Positions 33,579-38,755 of a stretch of DNA of 64,000 bases are shown here, piece by piece. The stretch is from NCBI RefSeq assembly GCF_023101665.1, contig NZ_CP082161.1:5270001-5334000 (forward strand), given 5' to 3'. Positions within the stretch are counted from its first letter, which is position 1. Each line of letters starts with the position of its first letter. The notes under the pieces were generated by a model. That model searched no databases, was not told where the DNA came from, and worked only from the letters and a program-made list of their open reading frames with translations. The position numbers were made by a program, and so were the translations under genes. The DNA comes from Bradyrhizobium sp. 195. GTDB lineage: Bacteria; Pseudomonadota; Alphaproteobacteria; Rhizobiales; Xanthobacteraceae.

Positions 33579-34583
33579 ATGGCCACGACATGGCGCGCTT
33601 TCGCAGTGCTGATCGCGCTGTGCGTTTCGAGTTCGTTCGCCGGCGGCGAAGCCGCCGCGCAGTCGCTGCCCAAGGAAGTCGCCACCCGCGCCGAGATCTA
33701 TCCGATCCCCTCGCTCACGCTCTCCGACCAGCAATTCCTCAGCGGCGATGCCGCCGCCGGCAAGGCGGTGACGGTGGCCGGCGAATTCCGCGTGGCCCAG
33801 GGGACCGGCAAGCTCCCGGTCGTGGTGCTGATGCACGGCTCGAGCGGGGTCGGCGCGACCACCGAGGCCTGGGTGCACGCTTTCAACGCCATGGGCGTCT
33901 CGACCTTCGTGATCGACGGTTTCACCGGCCGCGGGCTGACCGTGGTGGGACCGAACCAGGCGCTGCTTGGCCGGCTCAACCTGATCGTCGACATCTACCG
34001 CTCGCTCGAAATCCTGGCGAAACACCCGCGCGTCGATCCGGACCGTATCGTGCTGATGGGCTTTTCGCGCGGCGGACAGGCGACGCTCTATGCAAGCCTC
34101 GACCGCTTCCACAAGCTCTGGAACAAGTCAGGCATCCAGTTCGCGGCTTATATCCCGTTCTATCCGGACTGCTCCACGACCTACGTTGGCGACAGCGAGG
34201 TCACCGCACGCCCGATCAGGATCTTCCACGGCACGCCCGACGACTACAATCCCGTCAAGAGCTGCAAGGCCTTCGTGGAGCGGCTCAAGACCGCCGGGCG
34301 CGATGTGGTGCTGACCGAATATCCTGATAGCGCGCACGGGTTCGACAGCGGCCTGCTCGGCGTCAGCACCGTCGCCGTATCGGCCAATGCGCAGACCGTG
34401 CGCAACTGCCACATCAGGGAAGGCGACGGCAGCGTGCTGATGAACGGCGACACCAACGCGCCCTTCTCCTACAAGGACGCGTGTGTCGAGCTCAACCCGC
34501 ATGTCGGCGGCAATCCGAAGACGGCTGCGGAGTCGCGGAAAGCGGTCGTGGAGTTCTTGCTGGCGCTGTTCAAGCTGGGGTGA
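33579..34583 (+). CDS. Secreted dienelactone hydrolase-family protein
   Basis: A 334-residue alpha/beta hydrolase with a signal peptide (AFAVLIALCVSSSFAGGEAA, cleavage near residue 28). The oxyanion region is VVVLMHGSSGVG, the nucleophile Ser lies in LMGFSRGGQA, the acid residue in FHGTPDDYNP, and the His in YPDSAHGFDS, so the triad is complete. DLH-like enzymes usually carry Cys as the nucleophile; here it is Ser. The substrate is unknown. It follows the DUF1330-like gene by 74 bases and may share its transcript. Confidence 0.9.
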   Translation: MATTWRAFAVLIALCVSSSFAGGEAAAQSLPKEVATRAEIYPIPSLTLSDQQFLSGDAAAGKAVTVAGEFRVAQGTGKLPVVVLMHGSSGVGATTEAWVHAFNAMGVSTFVIDGFTGRGLTVVGPNQALLGRLNLIVDIYRSLEILAKHPRVDPDRIVLMGFSRGGQATLYASLDRFHKLWNKSGIQFAAYIPFYPDCSTTYVGDSEVTARPIRIFHGTPDDYNPVKSCKAFVERLKTAGRDVVLTEYPDSAHGFDSGLLGVSTVAVSANAQTVRNCHIREGDGSVLMNGDTNAPFSYKDACVELNPHVGGNPKTAAESRKAVVEFLLALFKLG

Positions 34584-34608
34584 AACCGCCTGCTCCGAAT
34601 GCGGTCTT

Positions 34609-34695
34609 GTAGGGTGGGCAAAGCGTAGCGTGCCCACCTAACGGTCACTACAGAGGAAGATCGTGGGCACGGCGCTACGCGCCTTTGCCCACCCT
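34609..34695. repeat. Palindromic repeat, family A, interrupted by the IS110 element
   Basis: Left arm GTAGGGTGGGCAAAGCGTAG; right arm GCGCCTTTGCCCACCCT, after which the repeat breaks off. The missing bases ACGG are found at 35866-35869, on the far side of the insertion. Copies at 47759-47848 and 49051-49145 show the uninterrupted form. Confidence 0.92.
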
Positions 34696-34713
34696 TGTAA
34701 TAGCGCGATCGTT

Positions 34714-34719
34714 TATTCT
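34714..34719 (+). promoter_or_regulatory. Candidate -10 element of a junction promoter
   Basis: TATTCT lies 18 bases inside the left end. In the excised circle, where the right end TTG joins CT and the left end T, the hexamer TTGCTT would sit 17 bases upstream of it. The -35 hexamer is therefore complete only when the ends are joined. Transcription would begin near 34726, ahead of the first RNA stem. Confidence 0.4.
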
Positions 34720-34725
34720 CGACCC

Positions 34726-34900
34726 GTTCCATGAGGAATGGCCTGCCGCGGTTTGCACCCCGCGACAGGCCGCTGGCGATCGGATCGAGCCCACCCAGAG
34801 CAGTTTGTGGCTGCCCCGTAGCGTGATCGCGTCAGCACCTTCATCGGACCCGGATGGTTGCCGGAACAACTTGGTTCGCTTCACAAGGCAGGGTCGACGA
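34726..34900 (+). ncRNA. Putative IS110 bridge RNA
   Basis: Three structures follow in order. First, a stem-loop at 34740-34771 (GGCCTG/CAGGCC, CGCGG/CCGCG). Second, a target loop: stem GCTG-GCGATC (34772-34781) with GATCGC-GT-CAGC (34825-34836), inner hairpin GCAG/CTGC (34800-34803, 34811-34814), and guides GCCCACCC (34789-34796) and CCGTAG (34816-34821) in the internal loop. Third, a donor loop: stem GACCC/GGGTC (34847-34851, 34891-34895), inner hairpin GAAC/GTTC (34864-34867, 34874-34877), and guides ATGGTTGC (34854-34861) and ACAAG (34883-34887). The guides match the flanks of the insertion and the element's ends. RNA limits are estimated. Confidence 0.85.
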
Positions 34901-34902
34901 AG

Positions 34903-35850
34903 ATGACACAGACTAACATAACGACGGCCGGGATCGATACGTCCAAGGCTAAACTGGACATCGCGGTTCATGGTCGAACCGAACGCTGGCAGGTCGCCAA
35001 TGCTTTACCGGGTTGGCGCGCTCTGGCAGCAAACCTGGCCAAGGCCGGCGTCACGCGGATCGGGATCGAGGCCACTGGCGGCTATGAACGTGGCGTGGTG
35101 GAGCATTTGCGATCGGCCGGTTTTACCGTGCTGTTGCTGCAGCCGCTTCAGGTCAAGGCCTTCGCCAAGGTGCATTTGCGCCGGGCCAAGAACGATGCGC
35201 TCGACGCCGTATTGATCGCCGCCTGTGCTGCGGCGCTCGATCCCCCTGAGATCGCGCCGGATCCGCGATTGACGGAATTGGCCGACTATCTGACCTTCCT
35301 TGAGCAGATCGAGGAAGATATCCGGCGCTTCAAGACGCGTCTCGAGCACATCGACGAGCCTGCGTTGCGACGCATCATCAACAGCGACATCGCCCGGTTG
35401 AAGGCACGCAAGGCCGCGCAGATTCGTGACATTGCCAAGCGCCTTCGTGCCCACGACGCCCTAGCCATGCGGCTCAAGCTGGTGCTGAGCATTCCCGGCA
35501 TCGGCGAGCGGACGGCGCTGGCGATCGTCATCCGCATGCCCGAACTCGGACGCGTCAGCCGGGAGCAAGCCGCAGCCCTGGCCGGGCTGGCTCCCTTCGA
35601 TTCCGACAGCGGACAGCACAGAGGACAGCGCAAGATCGCCGGAGGCCGCAGCCGCCTACGGCGCTCCCTGTTCGCCGCGGCCCTTCCAGCTGCCTTCCGC
35701 TGGAACAAGGCCTTGATCGCGCTCTATGCACGCCTCATGGCAAGGGGCAAAGTCCACAACGCAGCACTAATCGCCTGCGCCAGGAAACTCCTGATCTACG
35801 CCAATACTGTCGTACAACGCGGCACGCCCTGGACCGAAAAAGTCGCCTAG
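34903..35850 (+). CDS. IS110-family transposase (recombinase)
   Basis: A 315-residue protein with the two IS110 domains. The RuvC-like DEDD part shows Asp12 (AGIDTSKAKLDIAV), Glu56 (IGIEATGGYERG), Asp98 and Asp101 (AKNDALDAVL). The C-terminal part has LSIPGIGERTALAI and AALAGLAPFDSDSGQHRGQR, where Ser235 in SGQHRG is the likely nucleophile. No frameshift or truncation is visible, so the enzyme should be active. The start at 34903 immediately follows the bridge-RNA region. It works on circular intermediates with the RNA choosing donor and target. Confidence 0.96.
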   Translation: MTQTNITTAGIDTSKAKLDIAVHGRTERWQVANALPGWRALAANLAKAGVTRIGIEATGGYERGVVEHLRSAGFTVLLLQPLQVKAFAKVHLRRAKNDALDAVLIAACAAALDPPEIAPDPRLTELADYLTFLEQIEEDIRRFKTRLEHIDEPALRRIINSDIARLKARKAAQIRDIAKRLRAHDALAMRLKLVLSIPGIGERTALAIVIRMPELGRVSREQAAALAGLAPFDSDSGQHRGQRKIAGGRSRLRRSLFAAALPAAFRWNKALIALYARLMARGKVHNAALIACARKLLIYANTVVQRGTPWTEKVA

Positions 35851-35895
35851 CCTTTAATGGTTGCTACGGCATCTGCGCCGGCGCTCGATATACTC

Positions 35896-35982
35896 CGTCA
35901 TTGCGAGCGCAGCGAAGCAATCCAGACTTTTCCCGCGGCGGCAGTCTGGATTGCTTCGTCGCAAGGGCTCCTCGCAATGACG
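35896..35982. repeat. Palindromic repeat, family B
   Basis: CGTCATTGCGAGCGCAGCGA at the left, GGGCTCCTCGCAATGACG at the right, with CAATCCAGACT and AGTCTGGATTG inside. Beside the IS110 right end. Confidence 0.92.
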
Positions 35983-36015
35983 AGGACGCTGGAGAGAGGC
36001 GCCGGCGTAATGACG

Positions 36016-36834
36016 CTAGATCGCGCCGATCTCGGCAAGGCAGGCTTGCGTCAGCGGCATGCGCTCACTGATGAGACGCGGCTCCTTGCAGTCCATGTTG
36101 AGCGCGAACACGGTGTGCGCTTCGCCCTTCTCGGCCCAGCCGACCATCCAGCCAAGCGACGGCTCGCCGCGCTCGGCGCCGAGCAACCCAGACTTGGCGC
36201 GGATGACGCTGTCGCCCACCTTGGTGACCGGCAGGATGTCAGCGACGAGATCCTGGCTGCGCTTGCTGATCGGCAGCGCACGGCGGCGCAGCCGATCGAC
36301 GAAATCGATCTGCTCGACCGGATCGATGCGCAGCGCCCCGGTGAGCCAGAACTGGTCGATACCGCCGCCGATATCGCGATTGCCGTAGTCGAACTCGTCG
36401 ACGTATTTCTGCATGCGCTCCTGCCCGATGCGCCGCGCGATCTCCTGATAGACCGGCACCGCACTCACCGCGATCGCACTGCGTAACGTGTGATCCTTGT
36501 TCCAGGCCTCGATCGGGCGCTTCACGCCATCCCAGGGAAACACATCCTTGTCGGGGTCGGCGACCACGCCGGTCTCCAGCGCGATCAGCGAGTTGGGAAT
36601 CTTGAAGGTCGAGGCCGGCAGCTTCCCCTCGCCCGAGCGCTCCTTGTCGCTGGCGACGACCAGATAGTCCTCGACCTTGTAGCCGACGAAGGTGCCTGAC
36701 GTGCCAAGGTCGGTGAAGCGCTTTGCCAGGCTGTCGCGGATCTCGTTGCGCGGCGGCGCGACGTGGGCGAGCACGCGCGAGGGCACGATTGTGGCTGCGG
36801 CGAGCAGGCCGAGAGTGGAACGGCGGGTGATCAA
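36016..36834 (-). CDS. Class D beta-lactamase
   Basis: A 272-residue periplasmic enzyme with an export signal (MITRRSTLGLLAAATIVPSR; the RR and hydrophobic stretch suggest a Tat signal). The active-site serine is Ser75 in STFK (75-78), SAV is at 124-126, YGN at 150-152, KSG at 214-216 and a WxxG at 229-232. These are the class D (OXA) motifs in the right order and spacing, so it should hydrolyse beta-lactams; spectrum is unknown. It is probably a chromosomal enzyme. The neighbouring IS110 element lies downstream of its 3' end and cannot drive it. Confidence 0.93.
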   Translation of the reverse strand: MITRRSTLGLLAAATIVPSRVLAHVAPPRNEIRDSLAKRFTDLGTSGTFVGYKVEDYLVVASDKERSGEGKLPASTFKIPNSLIALETGVVADPDKDVFPWDGVKRPIEAWNKDHTLRSAIAVSAVPVYQEIARRIGQERMQKYVDEFDYGNRDIGGGIDQFWLTGALRIDPVEQIDFVDRLRRRALPISKRSQDLVADILPVTKVGDSVIRAKSGLLGAERGEPSLGWMVGWAEKGEAHTVFALNMDCKEPRLISERMPLTQACLAEIGAI

Positions 36835-36902: not shown

Positions 36903-37166
36903 CTACCGCCCTCGGCCCGACAGCCGCAGCACGAAAACCAGCACCTCGGCGACCGCCTTGTAAAGGTCCGGCGGGATCTCCTCGCCGAGCTCGACCTTGG
37001 ACAGCGCGCCGGCCAAGACCTCGTTTTCCTCGATCGGAATGTCGTGGGCCTTGGCGATCTCGACGATCTTTTCGCCGATCGTGCCCCTGCCCTTGGCGAC
37101 GACGACCGGCGCGTTGGTGCCCTTCTCGTAGTGCAGGGCAATCGCAAGCTTGGAGGAATCGCTCAT
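36903..37166 (-). CDS. FlhB C-terminal-domain-like protein (FlhX type)
   Basis: An 87-residue protein that matches the cytoplasmic tail of FlhB/EscU export-gate proteins: [20 protein letters not shown], then [19 protein letters not shown] and [15 protein letters not shown]. It has no membrane segments and no NPTH self-cleavage site, so it equals the post-cleavage fragment alone. Such orphans (sometimes called FlhX) can substitute partly for FlhB-CC. The start overlaps the stop of the FliK-like gene by four bases (ATGA), so the two are translationally coupled. Confidence 0.85.
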
Positions 37167-38755
37167 GTGGCGCGATCCAGGAAATGGCCGGCGCGGGCCG
37201 GCGCCGGTTGTGGTGGCGTGCCCTCGCGAACCACGATATCGCCGGGCTTGAGCTCGGCTCGCGTCAAAGCCTGGTTGAGCTCGCCGATTCCGGCGCGGAG
37301 CTGCTGCGCCGTCGCCGGCCGCTCCGCCCACATCCGCACGAAAGTCTTGTCGCCGTTCAGTGTGATCAGCGCATGCACCGGGCCGGCCGGCTCGACATTG
37401 AGCGAAAAGCGCGCGCGCCAGGCTTGCTTGGCGGGATCGGGGGATTCGTTGCCACCGTCACGCGAGATCTCGAACTGCGCCATCGCGGTGCCTTGCGGCG
37501 TCGCAAAGGGAATTTCGAAATTCCACTGCGGCACGGCCGGATCAACGCGGTGACCGCTGGCATCCGCGCGATCGGGAAGCGAAGCGACCTGCAGCAGGGT
37601 CTGCCGCGCGATCGCGGCATCGGTATCGTCGAGCAGGCGATGCACGGTCGCGGAGAGCGGCGTATCCGGCGCGAGCGATGGCGAGGCAATGGATTGCGGC
37701 GACGGCAGCGCGCCACGGAACGGCGGCGGTGTCGTGCGCGCCGCTGCCTCGAAGATATGGCCGTCAGGCACGGCTCTGTTGGAGCCGGGCACGCTGCCGG
37801 TCAGGCGCGGCAGGCTTTGCGTGACCTCCTGCAGGAGGCTCGCGGCAAGGCCGACGGACATGAGCCGCGGCATCGCTGGTTGCGGCGCGTCTGACGCCAT
37901 GTCGGCCAGCACGGCGGCCGCGAGATTGGGACTGCGCGGCATTTGCGGCTGTTGGGCGATTTCCGGCTCGGTCGACGACGCCTGAGCAGGCGCGGCGGCA
38001 ACCTGCGGTGATCCCGTGGTGCTGCCCGGAAGCGCGGCGCCTTGCGCCTGCGGCGCAGCGGACTCGAGTGTGGCCAAGGTCTGGCGCAGCACCAGCAATG
38101 CCGCTTTCAGGTCGGGCATCGTGCCGGAGGGCGGCGTCCCGCCCGCGGCCAGCGAGGCCTCGAGGAACAAGCCGGACTTCTGGAATGCGGACTCGACATC
38201 GGCGCCATCGAGCCCGGGATTGAGCGGCGTCTGCTGCGCCAATACGTCCAGCACCGCCTGCTTCAAGCCTGCGGGCAGATTGCTGCCGGTGACGACGGAG
38301 GCCAGATTGGCGAACAGCGGCGCCTGGCTGCCCTGCTTCGTCGCGGCCTCGGCCGAGGCCAATGTGACTGCAATCTGCTCGGTCGGCGTCAGGGCAGTGC
38401 GTGCCGCATTGACCGAGGGCGCAAGCGGCGGGCTTTCCACCAGCGAAGCCGCACGCGGCGTCAGCGTGATCTGATCGGTGGCCGCCTCGCCTGCCCCGCC
38501 CAATACAGCGAGGCGGATGGTGCCCTCGTTCTGAGACACGGCCAGCTGGAGATTCTGCCCGGGCGTCAGCGATACCTCCGACATCACGTCCATCGAGAGG
38601 TTGGCGATCGCAATCCGCACCAGATTGTCGGCGAGCACGCTCACCACCCTGGCATCGACGACGCTGCCGGCCTGAAGCACGAGGTCAGGCGTCGCCGCAT
38701 CCGCCACGGGGCTGGCGGCACTGACGGGAACGATGGAAGTGACCGGCGTCGGCAT
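37163..38755 (-). CDS. FliK-like flagellar hook-length control protein
   Basis: A 530-residue protein with a low-complexity Ala/Pro/Gln-rich middle and a C-terminal FliK-type domain: [20 protein letters not shown], then [20 protein letters not shown] and [11 protein letters not shown]. In flagellar systems this domain interacts with the FlhB tail to switch export specificity. The gene for an FlhB-tail protein overlaps its end. No other flagellar gene lies in the window. It may therefore act as a spare or alternative switch rather than in a full flagellar operon. Confidence 0.85.

What the first reader, a model, noticed from the sequence alone, without database searches (positions are those of the whole stretch)
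34772..34836. Bridge-RNA target-binding loop whose two guides match the actual insertion site
Seen: upstream of the IS110 transposase a stem (GCTG-GCGATC with GATCGC-GT-CAGC) closes an internal loop around a small GCAG/CTGC hairpin. The 5' side of the loop contains GCCCACCC and the 3' side CCGTAG. The insertion site reads GCCCACCC-T on the left (34687-34695) and CTACGG on the right (35864-35869); CCGTAG is the exact complement of CTACGG. Known: bridge RNAs of IS110 elements such as IS621 use a left guide that copies the top strand and a right guide that pairs with it. The match of both arms at once, in the expected positions, makes a functional guide RNA very likely. I am not aware of a description of this element, but could not check.
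Basis: partly seen in the sequence, partly recalled or inferred. Interest (0 to 1): 0.93.

Follow-up and report, generated by a model that had tools for sequence, protein, structure and literature searches.

The report
IS110 bridge RNA targeting bacterial REPs
A small jumping gene in a Bradyrhizobium genome appears to carry its own guide RNA that reads the repeated palindrome it inserts into; relatives whose guide letters differ sit in correspondingly different palindromes, so it is a well-supported new member of a mechanism first described in 2024.

Summary
The element (34694-35863, 1,170 bp, CT core at both ends) is an IS110-group insertion sequence with five near-identical copies in its Bradyrhizobium genome, all in one REP-type palindrome. 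Upstream of the transposase lies a conserved RNA structure (34726-34905) with target and donor loops. Comparative tests support guiding: in 83 clade copies the left guide equals the left target in 74, and in 80 allowing G-U. Weighed against same-genome site abundance, 70 of 76 match, 37 expected. A later set, mostly other genera, gave 20 exact plus 9 G-U-compatible of 32 (11 aligned by eye). Guide type is scattered over the transposase tree, and one orthologous locus holds the intact, empty REP. Nothing was tested at the bench, and well-supported independent guide switches number only three. Bridge RNAs, REP targeting and natural re-programming are already published: a new member of a known kind.

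The parts
34609..34693 (+). REP-type palindrome (inverted arms GTAGGGTGGGC...GCCCACC) that serves as target; GCCCACC at 34687-34693 is the left target
   Evidence: 37 further places in the genome match this part (only 40 of 424 candidates were scored there); GCCCACCCTACG occurs 248 times in the genome against 1 for the reversed control
34694..34695 (+). left copy of the CT core dinucleotide
   Evidence: junction constant in all five own copies
34696..34902 (+). left non-coding end (LE), 207 nt
34714..34719 (+). -10-like TATTCT, 17 nt after TTGCTT once RE and LE are joined in a circle
   Evidence: TTGCTT-17-TANNNT in 22 of 22 clade lineages listed, no shuffled control made
34726..34905 (+). predicted bridge RNA region (R1 match; last 3 nt are the tnp ATG)
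   Evidence: (172.5 bits, but this sequence is one of the 23 in the model)
34772..34836 (+). target-binding loop with closing stem
   Evidence: helices 3 and 4, 97.4% and 99.1% of cells paired
34789..34796 (+). left target guide (LTG) GCCCACC+C
34816..34821 (+). right target guide (RTG) CCGTAG, complement of CTACGG (core CT + right target)
34847..34895 (+). donor-binding loop with closing stem
   Evidence: helices 5 and 6
34854..34861 (+). left donor guide (LDG) ATGGTTGC, copy of RE ...ATGGTTG + core C
34883..34887 (+). right donor guide (RDG) ACAAG, complement of core CT + LE TGT
34903..35850 (+). IS110-family transposase/recombinase, 315 aa (the ORF is also open from TTG 34858)
   Evidence: PF01548 and PF02371; NF033542 'IS110 family RNA-guided transposase' 176.7 bits, cut-off 140; IS621 and ISCro4 by sequence
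35851..35863 (+). right non-coding end (RE), 13 nt, ending AATGGTTG
35864..35869 (+). right copy of core CT and right target ACGG

Best explanation
This is an IS110-group insertion sequence whose left end encodes a bridge RNA. Proposed cycle: (1) the recombinase excises the element as a circle, joining RE to LE; (2) the junction places TTGCTT (TTG of RE, core CT, T of LE) 17 nt before TATTCT, making a promoter for the RNA; (3) the RNA folds into a 5' stem-loop, a target loop and a donor loop; (4) LTG GCCCACC pairs with the target's bottom strand and RTG CCGUAG with its top strand, while LDG AUGGUUGC and RDG ACAAG read the RE-LE junction; (5) the recombinase exchanges strands at the CT cores, inserting the element in fixed orientation into a REP arm with nothing but CT on both sides. 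Shown by sequence here: the termini, the conserved RNA structure, guide matches, target choice, co-variation and an empty orthologous site. Inferred from the IS621 work: transcription, RNA binding, the circle and catalysis.
For: Five near-identical own copies at the same site type. Guide = left target in 74 of 83 clade copies, 80 of 83 allowing G-U. Against same-genome abundance of three site families: 70 of 76 match, 37.0 expected, P 1.2e-25 with copies taken as independent. By guide, pooled over genomes: GCCCACC-guided, 48 insertions in GCCCACC sites and 0 in 477 other sites; ACCCATC-guided, 18 in ACCCATC, 6 in ACCCACC, 0 in 266 GCCCACC sites; ACCCACC-guided, 4 in ACCCACC and 0 in 82 others. 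Later set: 20 exact and 9 G-U-compatible of 32; guide shuffles among 16 lineages reach the observed score in 0 of 20,000. Consensus fold with 10 pairs showing two-sided changes; 98.7% of cells paired against 25-52% when slid. Donor guides match the ends in 23 of 24 clade lineages, one with a paired change (G009). Intact REP at the orthologous locus in L167.
Against: No transcript, circle or recombination was observed. Three of 83 discovery copies break the rule: L061 (three mismatches), L114 (one C missing at the junction), L158 (guide GCCACCC in a GCCCACC site). Three of 32 in the later set break it (L189, L192, L203). In 35 distant copies the match is weaker: 13 exact, 21 with G-U. The fourth right-target base often does not pair with the RTG. 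Only 3 guide switches rest on well-supported branches; over random pairings the target goes the same way in 2.8 of 3 on average, too few for significance. One of the five structure measures, the number of further pair types, did not exceed shuffles (17 against 18.3).
Confidence: 0.95

Rival explanations
1. The transposase protein alone recognises the REP, and the guide-like letters in the left end are a chance or captured fragment of the target.
For: For two REP-targeting elements of another family (IS1397, ISKpn1) experiments suggest that the transposase itself sets the target (PMC1525189, passages). A short match can arise by chance: 34 of 20,000 shuffles hold both guides.
Against: The GCCCACC guide type needs 7 changes on the transposase tree, 4 of them forced by well-supported branches, yet the target follows the guide. 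A captured fragment would not give a reverse-complement right guide or a second, donor-matching loop.
Confidence: 0.03
2. The structured 5' region is mainly a leader that regulates transposase translation, and the guide matches are secondary.
For: The predicted structure ends 7 nt before the start codon. The ISPpu9 transposase is regulated by small RNAs and its 5' UTR (PMC8450116, title and start of abstract in a search listing).
Against: It is letters of the internal loop that track the targets. The two roles are not exclusive.
Confidence: 0.02
3. Copies were spread by homologous recombination between REPs, so the flanks only look targeted.
For: REPs are abundant and similar.
Against: The junction is exact to the base, the flanks outside the REP differ between copies, and the type of REP used follows the guide rather than abundance.
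Confidence: 0.01

Closest known systems
IS621 (E. coli) bridge RNA and recombinase (PMC11208160, PMC11208158; passages read)
   Same: DEDD plus serine recombinase; CT core; bridge RNA in the left end; LTG copies the top strand, RTG pairs with it; donor loop; RE-LE junction promoter; REP target whose core plus right target is CTAC.
   Different: Transposase only distantly related (phmmer 85.9 bits); left target GCCCACC instead of ATCAGGC; the LTG base facing core T is A here, U58 in IS621. The two RNAs were not aligned.
ISCro4 transposase (PDB 9t56)
   Same: Best PDB match by sequence (94.2 bits).
   Different: Its RNA and target were not compared here.
Natural re-programming in IS1111/IS110: ISEc11/ISXne4 and ISEc21/ISMch6 (PMC11187229, passages)
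   Same: Relatives whose guide bases and targets changed together.
   Different: Two pairs there, with few known copies of ISXne4 and one of ISMch6; here several specificities in related elements, with site choice weighed against competing REPs in the same genome.
REP-targeting IS110 members (ISPpu9, ISPpu10, ISPa11, ISRm19; PMC1525189, passages)
   Same: All copies in that paper's table lie in REPs (7/7, 7/7, 6/6, 4/4).
   Different: Pre-dates knowledge of the guide RNA; other hosts.
GTAG-type REPs of Bradyrhizobium (PMC3733652, passages)
   Same: The target ends in CTAC, i.e. GTAG on the other strand, and among the places listed occurs largely as inverted pairs about 80 bp apart.
   Different: Assignment to one of the paper's families was not made; its figures are not held.

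Membership tests
IS110 family, IS110 group | N-terminal DEDD RuvC-like (PF01548) and C-terminal PF02371 domains | tested here: met
   77.9 and 64.5 bits, cut-offs 29 and 21.3; NF033542 above cut-off
IS110 family, IS110 group | Catalytic residues equivalent to IS621 D11, E60, D102, D105, S241 | tested here: met
   alignment; query D12, E56, D98, D101, S236; published numbers; the 2-residue chain offset is my inference
IS110 family, IS110 group | Long left and short right non-coding end | tested here: met
   207 nt and 13 nt
IS110 family, IS110 group | Insertion at a shared core, no further target duplication | tested here: met
   filled site against the empty site in L167, homologous on both sides; L169 also has an intact REP but only its left side is homologous
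IS110 bridge RNA | 5' stem-loop, target loop, donor loop with conserved pairing | tested here: met
IS110 bridge RNA | LTG matches top strand, RTG complements top strand around the core | tested here: met
   right target begins AC, complementary to the RTG, in 83 of 84 clade copies (74 ACG, 6 ACA, 2 ACT, 1 ACC, 1 GCT)
IS110 bridge RNA | LDG and RDG match the RE-LE junction | tested here: met
   ATGGTTG and ACAAG in 23 of 24 clade lineages; G086 deviates in both; in the distant set G137 has one LDG mismatch
IS110 bridge RNA | Promoter restored at the RE-LE junction | tested here: inconclusive
   TTGCTT-17-TANNNT in 22 of 22 clade lineages, TTGCTT-17-CAGAAT or CAAGAT in 8 distant ones, not in G118; activity not testable
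IS110 bridge RNA | RNA is made, binds the recombinase and directs recombination | not testable with these tools
   needs experiment
Rfam family | Match to a curated RNA model | tested here: not met
   no match at E up to 1 in window 34500-36000; says nothing against the bridge-RNA reading

The most novel reading that the evidence does not exclude
In this alphaproteobacterial IS110 clade the target guide is a fast-changing module that walks between the REP families of its hosts in single-base steps (for instance GCCCACC, ACCCACC, ACCCATC), and one-way G-U wobble is the stepping stone: a guide U still uses sites with C, while a guide C almost never uses sites with T. The right guide meanwhile reads the GTAG end shared by REPs, as the IS621 right guide also does, so a change in the left guide alone is enough to move between REP families.
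Probability: 0.45. Interest if true: 0.62.

Novelty: new member of a known kind. Interest (0 to 1): 0.5.

Why it matters
It adds a compact 1,170-bp element and its relatives as a natural data set on bridge-RNA specificity: several guides, competing sites in the same genomes, and insertions that record which sites are used. Such data show in nature what has otherwise been measured in reporter screens, including tolerance of G-U pairs, and suggest how an RNA-guided insertion sequence changes its target without changing its protein. The recombinase is short and the right end only 13 nt, which may interest tool builders, though neither property was tested.

Tried and rejected
Rfam gave nothing. 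Single-sequence folding did not give the open loops; the alignment fold did. No relative was found in viral contigs and no near match in plasmid records. The 17-genome counts used exact 12-mers only. The first automatic right ends for the middle group were wrong and were redone with a stricter motif. L045 had no readable guide by the rule. G118 and G004 copies (6 loci) were fetched but not scored for guides. Clade copies listed but truncated or not fetched are outside the counts; itself cut its list. Protein-only targeting, leader-only function and recombination between REPs were considered and rejected as told under rivals. No structure prediction was run: the sequence match to IS621 and ISCro4 made it unnecessary. 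For the tree, the long branch of G145a was left in, with the tool's warning about long branches. In one search the tie in G047 was set by hand to ACCCATC; ties in G075 and G121 fell on their odd copies. In one search G414 was represented by its majority target and the tie in G448 by L203.

Full report
WHAT IS THERE. The element runs from the CT at 34694-34695 to G at 35863, with the second CT at 35864-35865 belonging to the right junction; 1,170 bp counting one CT. It encodes one protein, 34903-35850, 315 aa, with the two IS110 domains, above cut-off for NCBI's 'IS110 family RNA-guided transposase', and with ISCro4 and IS621 as the two distinct PDB sequences matched at E 0.001. The residues aligned to IS621's catalytic D11, E60, D102, D105 and S241 are D12, E56, D98, D101 and S236 (the two-residue offset of the PDB chain is my inference). 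A protein search scored 8,000 candidates and found 5,932 relatives at E 1e-10; the 120 listed are 83-94% identical.

OWN COPIES. The genome holds five copies, 98-100% identical. All five have left flank GCCTTTGCCCACC, core CT, and right flank CT-ACG, and differ outside the repeat. The target GCCCACCCTACG occurs 248 times in the genome, the reversed control once. The 100 places listed there lie largely as inverted pairs about 80 bp apart, as GTAG-type REPs described for Bradyrhizobium often do (PMC3733652, passages).

EMPTY SITE. Ten of 41 genomes, the own one included, hold the upstream gene. Of eight other loci searched for the repeat letters (L173 was left out), two, L167 and L169, carry a whole REP there without the element; the other six showed none of the four motifs. 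L167 is homologous on both sides; L169 on the left only. In L167 the REP reads ...GCGCCTTTGCCCACCCTACGGCGG... and is followed by the end of the same downstream gene. Insertion therefore split GCCCACC-CT-ACGG, leaving only CT on both sides. The right flank of the filled site also has a further dispersed repeat that L167 lacks.

THE RNA. Twenty-three left ends, the own one and 22 of relatives, were aligned. Their consensus fold has 5' hairpins, a stem closing the target loop, and a stem closing the donor loop, with 10 pairs changed on both sides and kept. Of cells, 98.7% pair; with the partner slid by 1-3 columns 25-52% do. Four of five measures are reached by 0 of 500 shuffles; the fifth, further pair types, is not raised (17 against 18.3). 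A model built from it hits the window at 34726-34905 with 172.5 bits, as it must, since that sequence is in it. In 11 of 12 distant IS110 loci tested it hits at the same place upstream of the transposase, E 3e-8 to 5e-4; L143 was missed, and four weaker or partial hits elsewhere had E 0.002 to 0.75.

DONOR LOOP AND PROMOTER. ATGGTTGC (34854-34861) copies the right end plus core C, and ACAAG (34883-34887) complements core CT plus TGT of the left end; the finding did not mention these. ATGGTTG and ACAAG hold in 23 of 24 clade lineages, G086 deviating in both; in the middle group the base facing core C is A. In G009 the left end reads TGTCT and the guide AGACAAG, a paired change. In the distant set 8 of 9 lineages have ACAGTTG in both guide and end; G137 has one mismatch. 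When RE and LE are joined, TTGCTT stands exactly 17 nt before TANNNT in 22 of 22 clade lineages listed (TATTCT here; TATAAT in two) and before CAGAAT or CAAGAT in 8 distant ones; G118 differs; in the integrated copy the TTG is replaced by target letters. No shuffled control was made for this. It agrees with the IS621 circle promoter (PMC11208160 and PMC11208158, passages).

GUIDE AND TARGET, FIRST SET. I fetched 120 copies by place besides the five own ones: 84 belong to the window element's clade (own five included), 35 to a distant set, 6 were not scored. One clade copy (L063) lacks its left end. Of 83, the 7-nt left guide equals the 7-nt left target in 74, and in 80 if guide U facing target C, or guide G facing target A, is allowed. 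The exceptions are L061, L114 and L158. By lineage, 18 of 23 match in every copy and 22 of 23 in at least one. Three site families exist in all 17 genomes counted. If each copy chose sites by abundance, 37.0 of 76 would match; 70 do (P 1.2e-25, copies treated as independent, which overstates it). The 76 leave out L061, L114, L158 and four copies in genomes not counted. The sharpest single case is G055: 7 uninterrupted GCCCACC sites against 113 of the other two families, yet all six GCCCACC-guided copies sit in GCCCACC. In G086 all four ACCCATC-guided copies sit in ACCCATC with 8 such uninterrupted sites against 118 others.

INDEPENDENCE. On the transposase tree the GCCCACC type needs 7 changes, 4 of them forced by well-supported branches; shuffled labels need 8.4 on average and 127 of 500 shuffles need as few. 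So the guide changes readily while the protein stays similar. Strict independent pairs are few: 3 on supported branches (6 on all), the target going the same way in 2.8 of 3 on average, which cannot reach significance.

LATER SET. The RNA model was searched in 296 genomes of the family; 18 had matches at E 1e-12, in 8 of 47 genera, own genome included. Leaving out G000, G009 and G086, which are in the model, I examined 32 of 33 match places (G497:C522 was not fetched) plus the MAG locus L040, which I had already looked at. One of the 32 (L189, G054) is from the own genus. With a guide rule written before looking, 21 could be scored: 13 exact, 18 with G-U. Twelve remained: 11 were aligned by eye, with the target in sight, and L202 has lost its target loop. 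Together 20 are exact, 9 G-U-compatible and 3 not (L189, L192, L203) of 32. New guides appear with their targets: ATCCGCC (G428, G497), ACCCGCC (G366), GCGCACC (G393). In G503 and G400 the left guide UGGGCUU faces CGGGCTC, and in L191 (G400) the right guide CCTGAG faces CTCAGG, so both guides have changed. Shuffling guides among the 16 lineages never reached the observed score (0 of 20,000, also without G503 and G400). G428 has 48 ATCCGCC sites and none of ACCCGCC.

WOBBLE. In the clade and later sets, guide U facing target C occurs in 13 copies from 6 lineages; guide C facing target T occurs only in L061, inside a triple mismatch. ACCCATC-guided elements occupy 18 of 65 ACCCATC, 6 of 196 ACCCACC and 0 of 266 GCCCACC sites (wobble against mismatch Fisher P 0.006). 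Against: in the distant set L130 shows a single C-to-T difference, and GCCCACC guides did not use the G-U-compatible ACCCACC sites in the first set (0 of 303), although L206 in the later set does. A G-T pair between left guide and target bottom strand was seen in the IS621 structure (PMC11208158, passages).

DISTANT SET. In 35 copies 34-40% identical in protein, 13 are exact and 21 G-U-compatible; the mean match is 5.94 of 7 against 3.04 for other guides of that set.

COMPARISON. Bridge RNAs in IS110 (PMC11208160), their structure (PMC11208158), natural re-programming (PMC11187229) and REP targeting (PMC1525189) are all in print; I read passages of each. Searches on bridge RNA and IS110, on Bradyrhizobium with IS110 or REPs, and on IS110 with GTAG and RAYT listed nothing that names this element; subscription papers, ISfinder and preprints were not searchable. 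The E. coli REP queries quoted in PMC11208160 also end in CTAC or CTACG, so the right guide of both elements spells the GTAG end of the repeat; that link is my inference.

VERDICT. Observation confirmed, interpretation supported, mechanism inferred by homology and strong comparative evidence. It is a new, unusually well-documented natural member of a known kind.

Noticed in passing
L046/L051 and L049/L053 (genome G101): Both inverted arms of a single REP are occupied by two different IS110 relatives standing back to back, 73-74 bp between cores, at two places with different flanks.
   Followed up: partly
window 36016-36834, minus strand: Class D beta-lactamase gene about 150 bp right of the element: above the general class D cut-off (254.2 against 250), below the cut-off of every named family among the 25 of 69 shown.
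   Followed up: no
window 36903-37331 and 37163-38755, minus strand: FlhB-like C-terminal protein (below curated cut-offs) beside a long ORF with no NCBIfam match.
   Followed up: no
window 35895-35950: The right flank begins a dispersed repeat (CGTCATTGCGAGCG...), with four other matches in the own genome.
   Followed up: no
L193, L202, L063: Damaged elements: an ACCCATC-type REP lies within the RNA region of L193, L202 has lost its target loop, L063 its left junction.
   Followed up: partly
L076-L115 group against window element: Relatives 51-55% identical are some 200 bp longer (1,371-1,417 bp); where the extra length lies was not worked out.
   Followed up: no
L158 (genome G023): Single copy with guide GCCACCC in a GCCCACC site; a sister copy in the same genome has GCCCACC. 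Possibly a guide changed after insertion.
   Followed up: no
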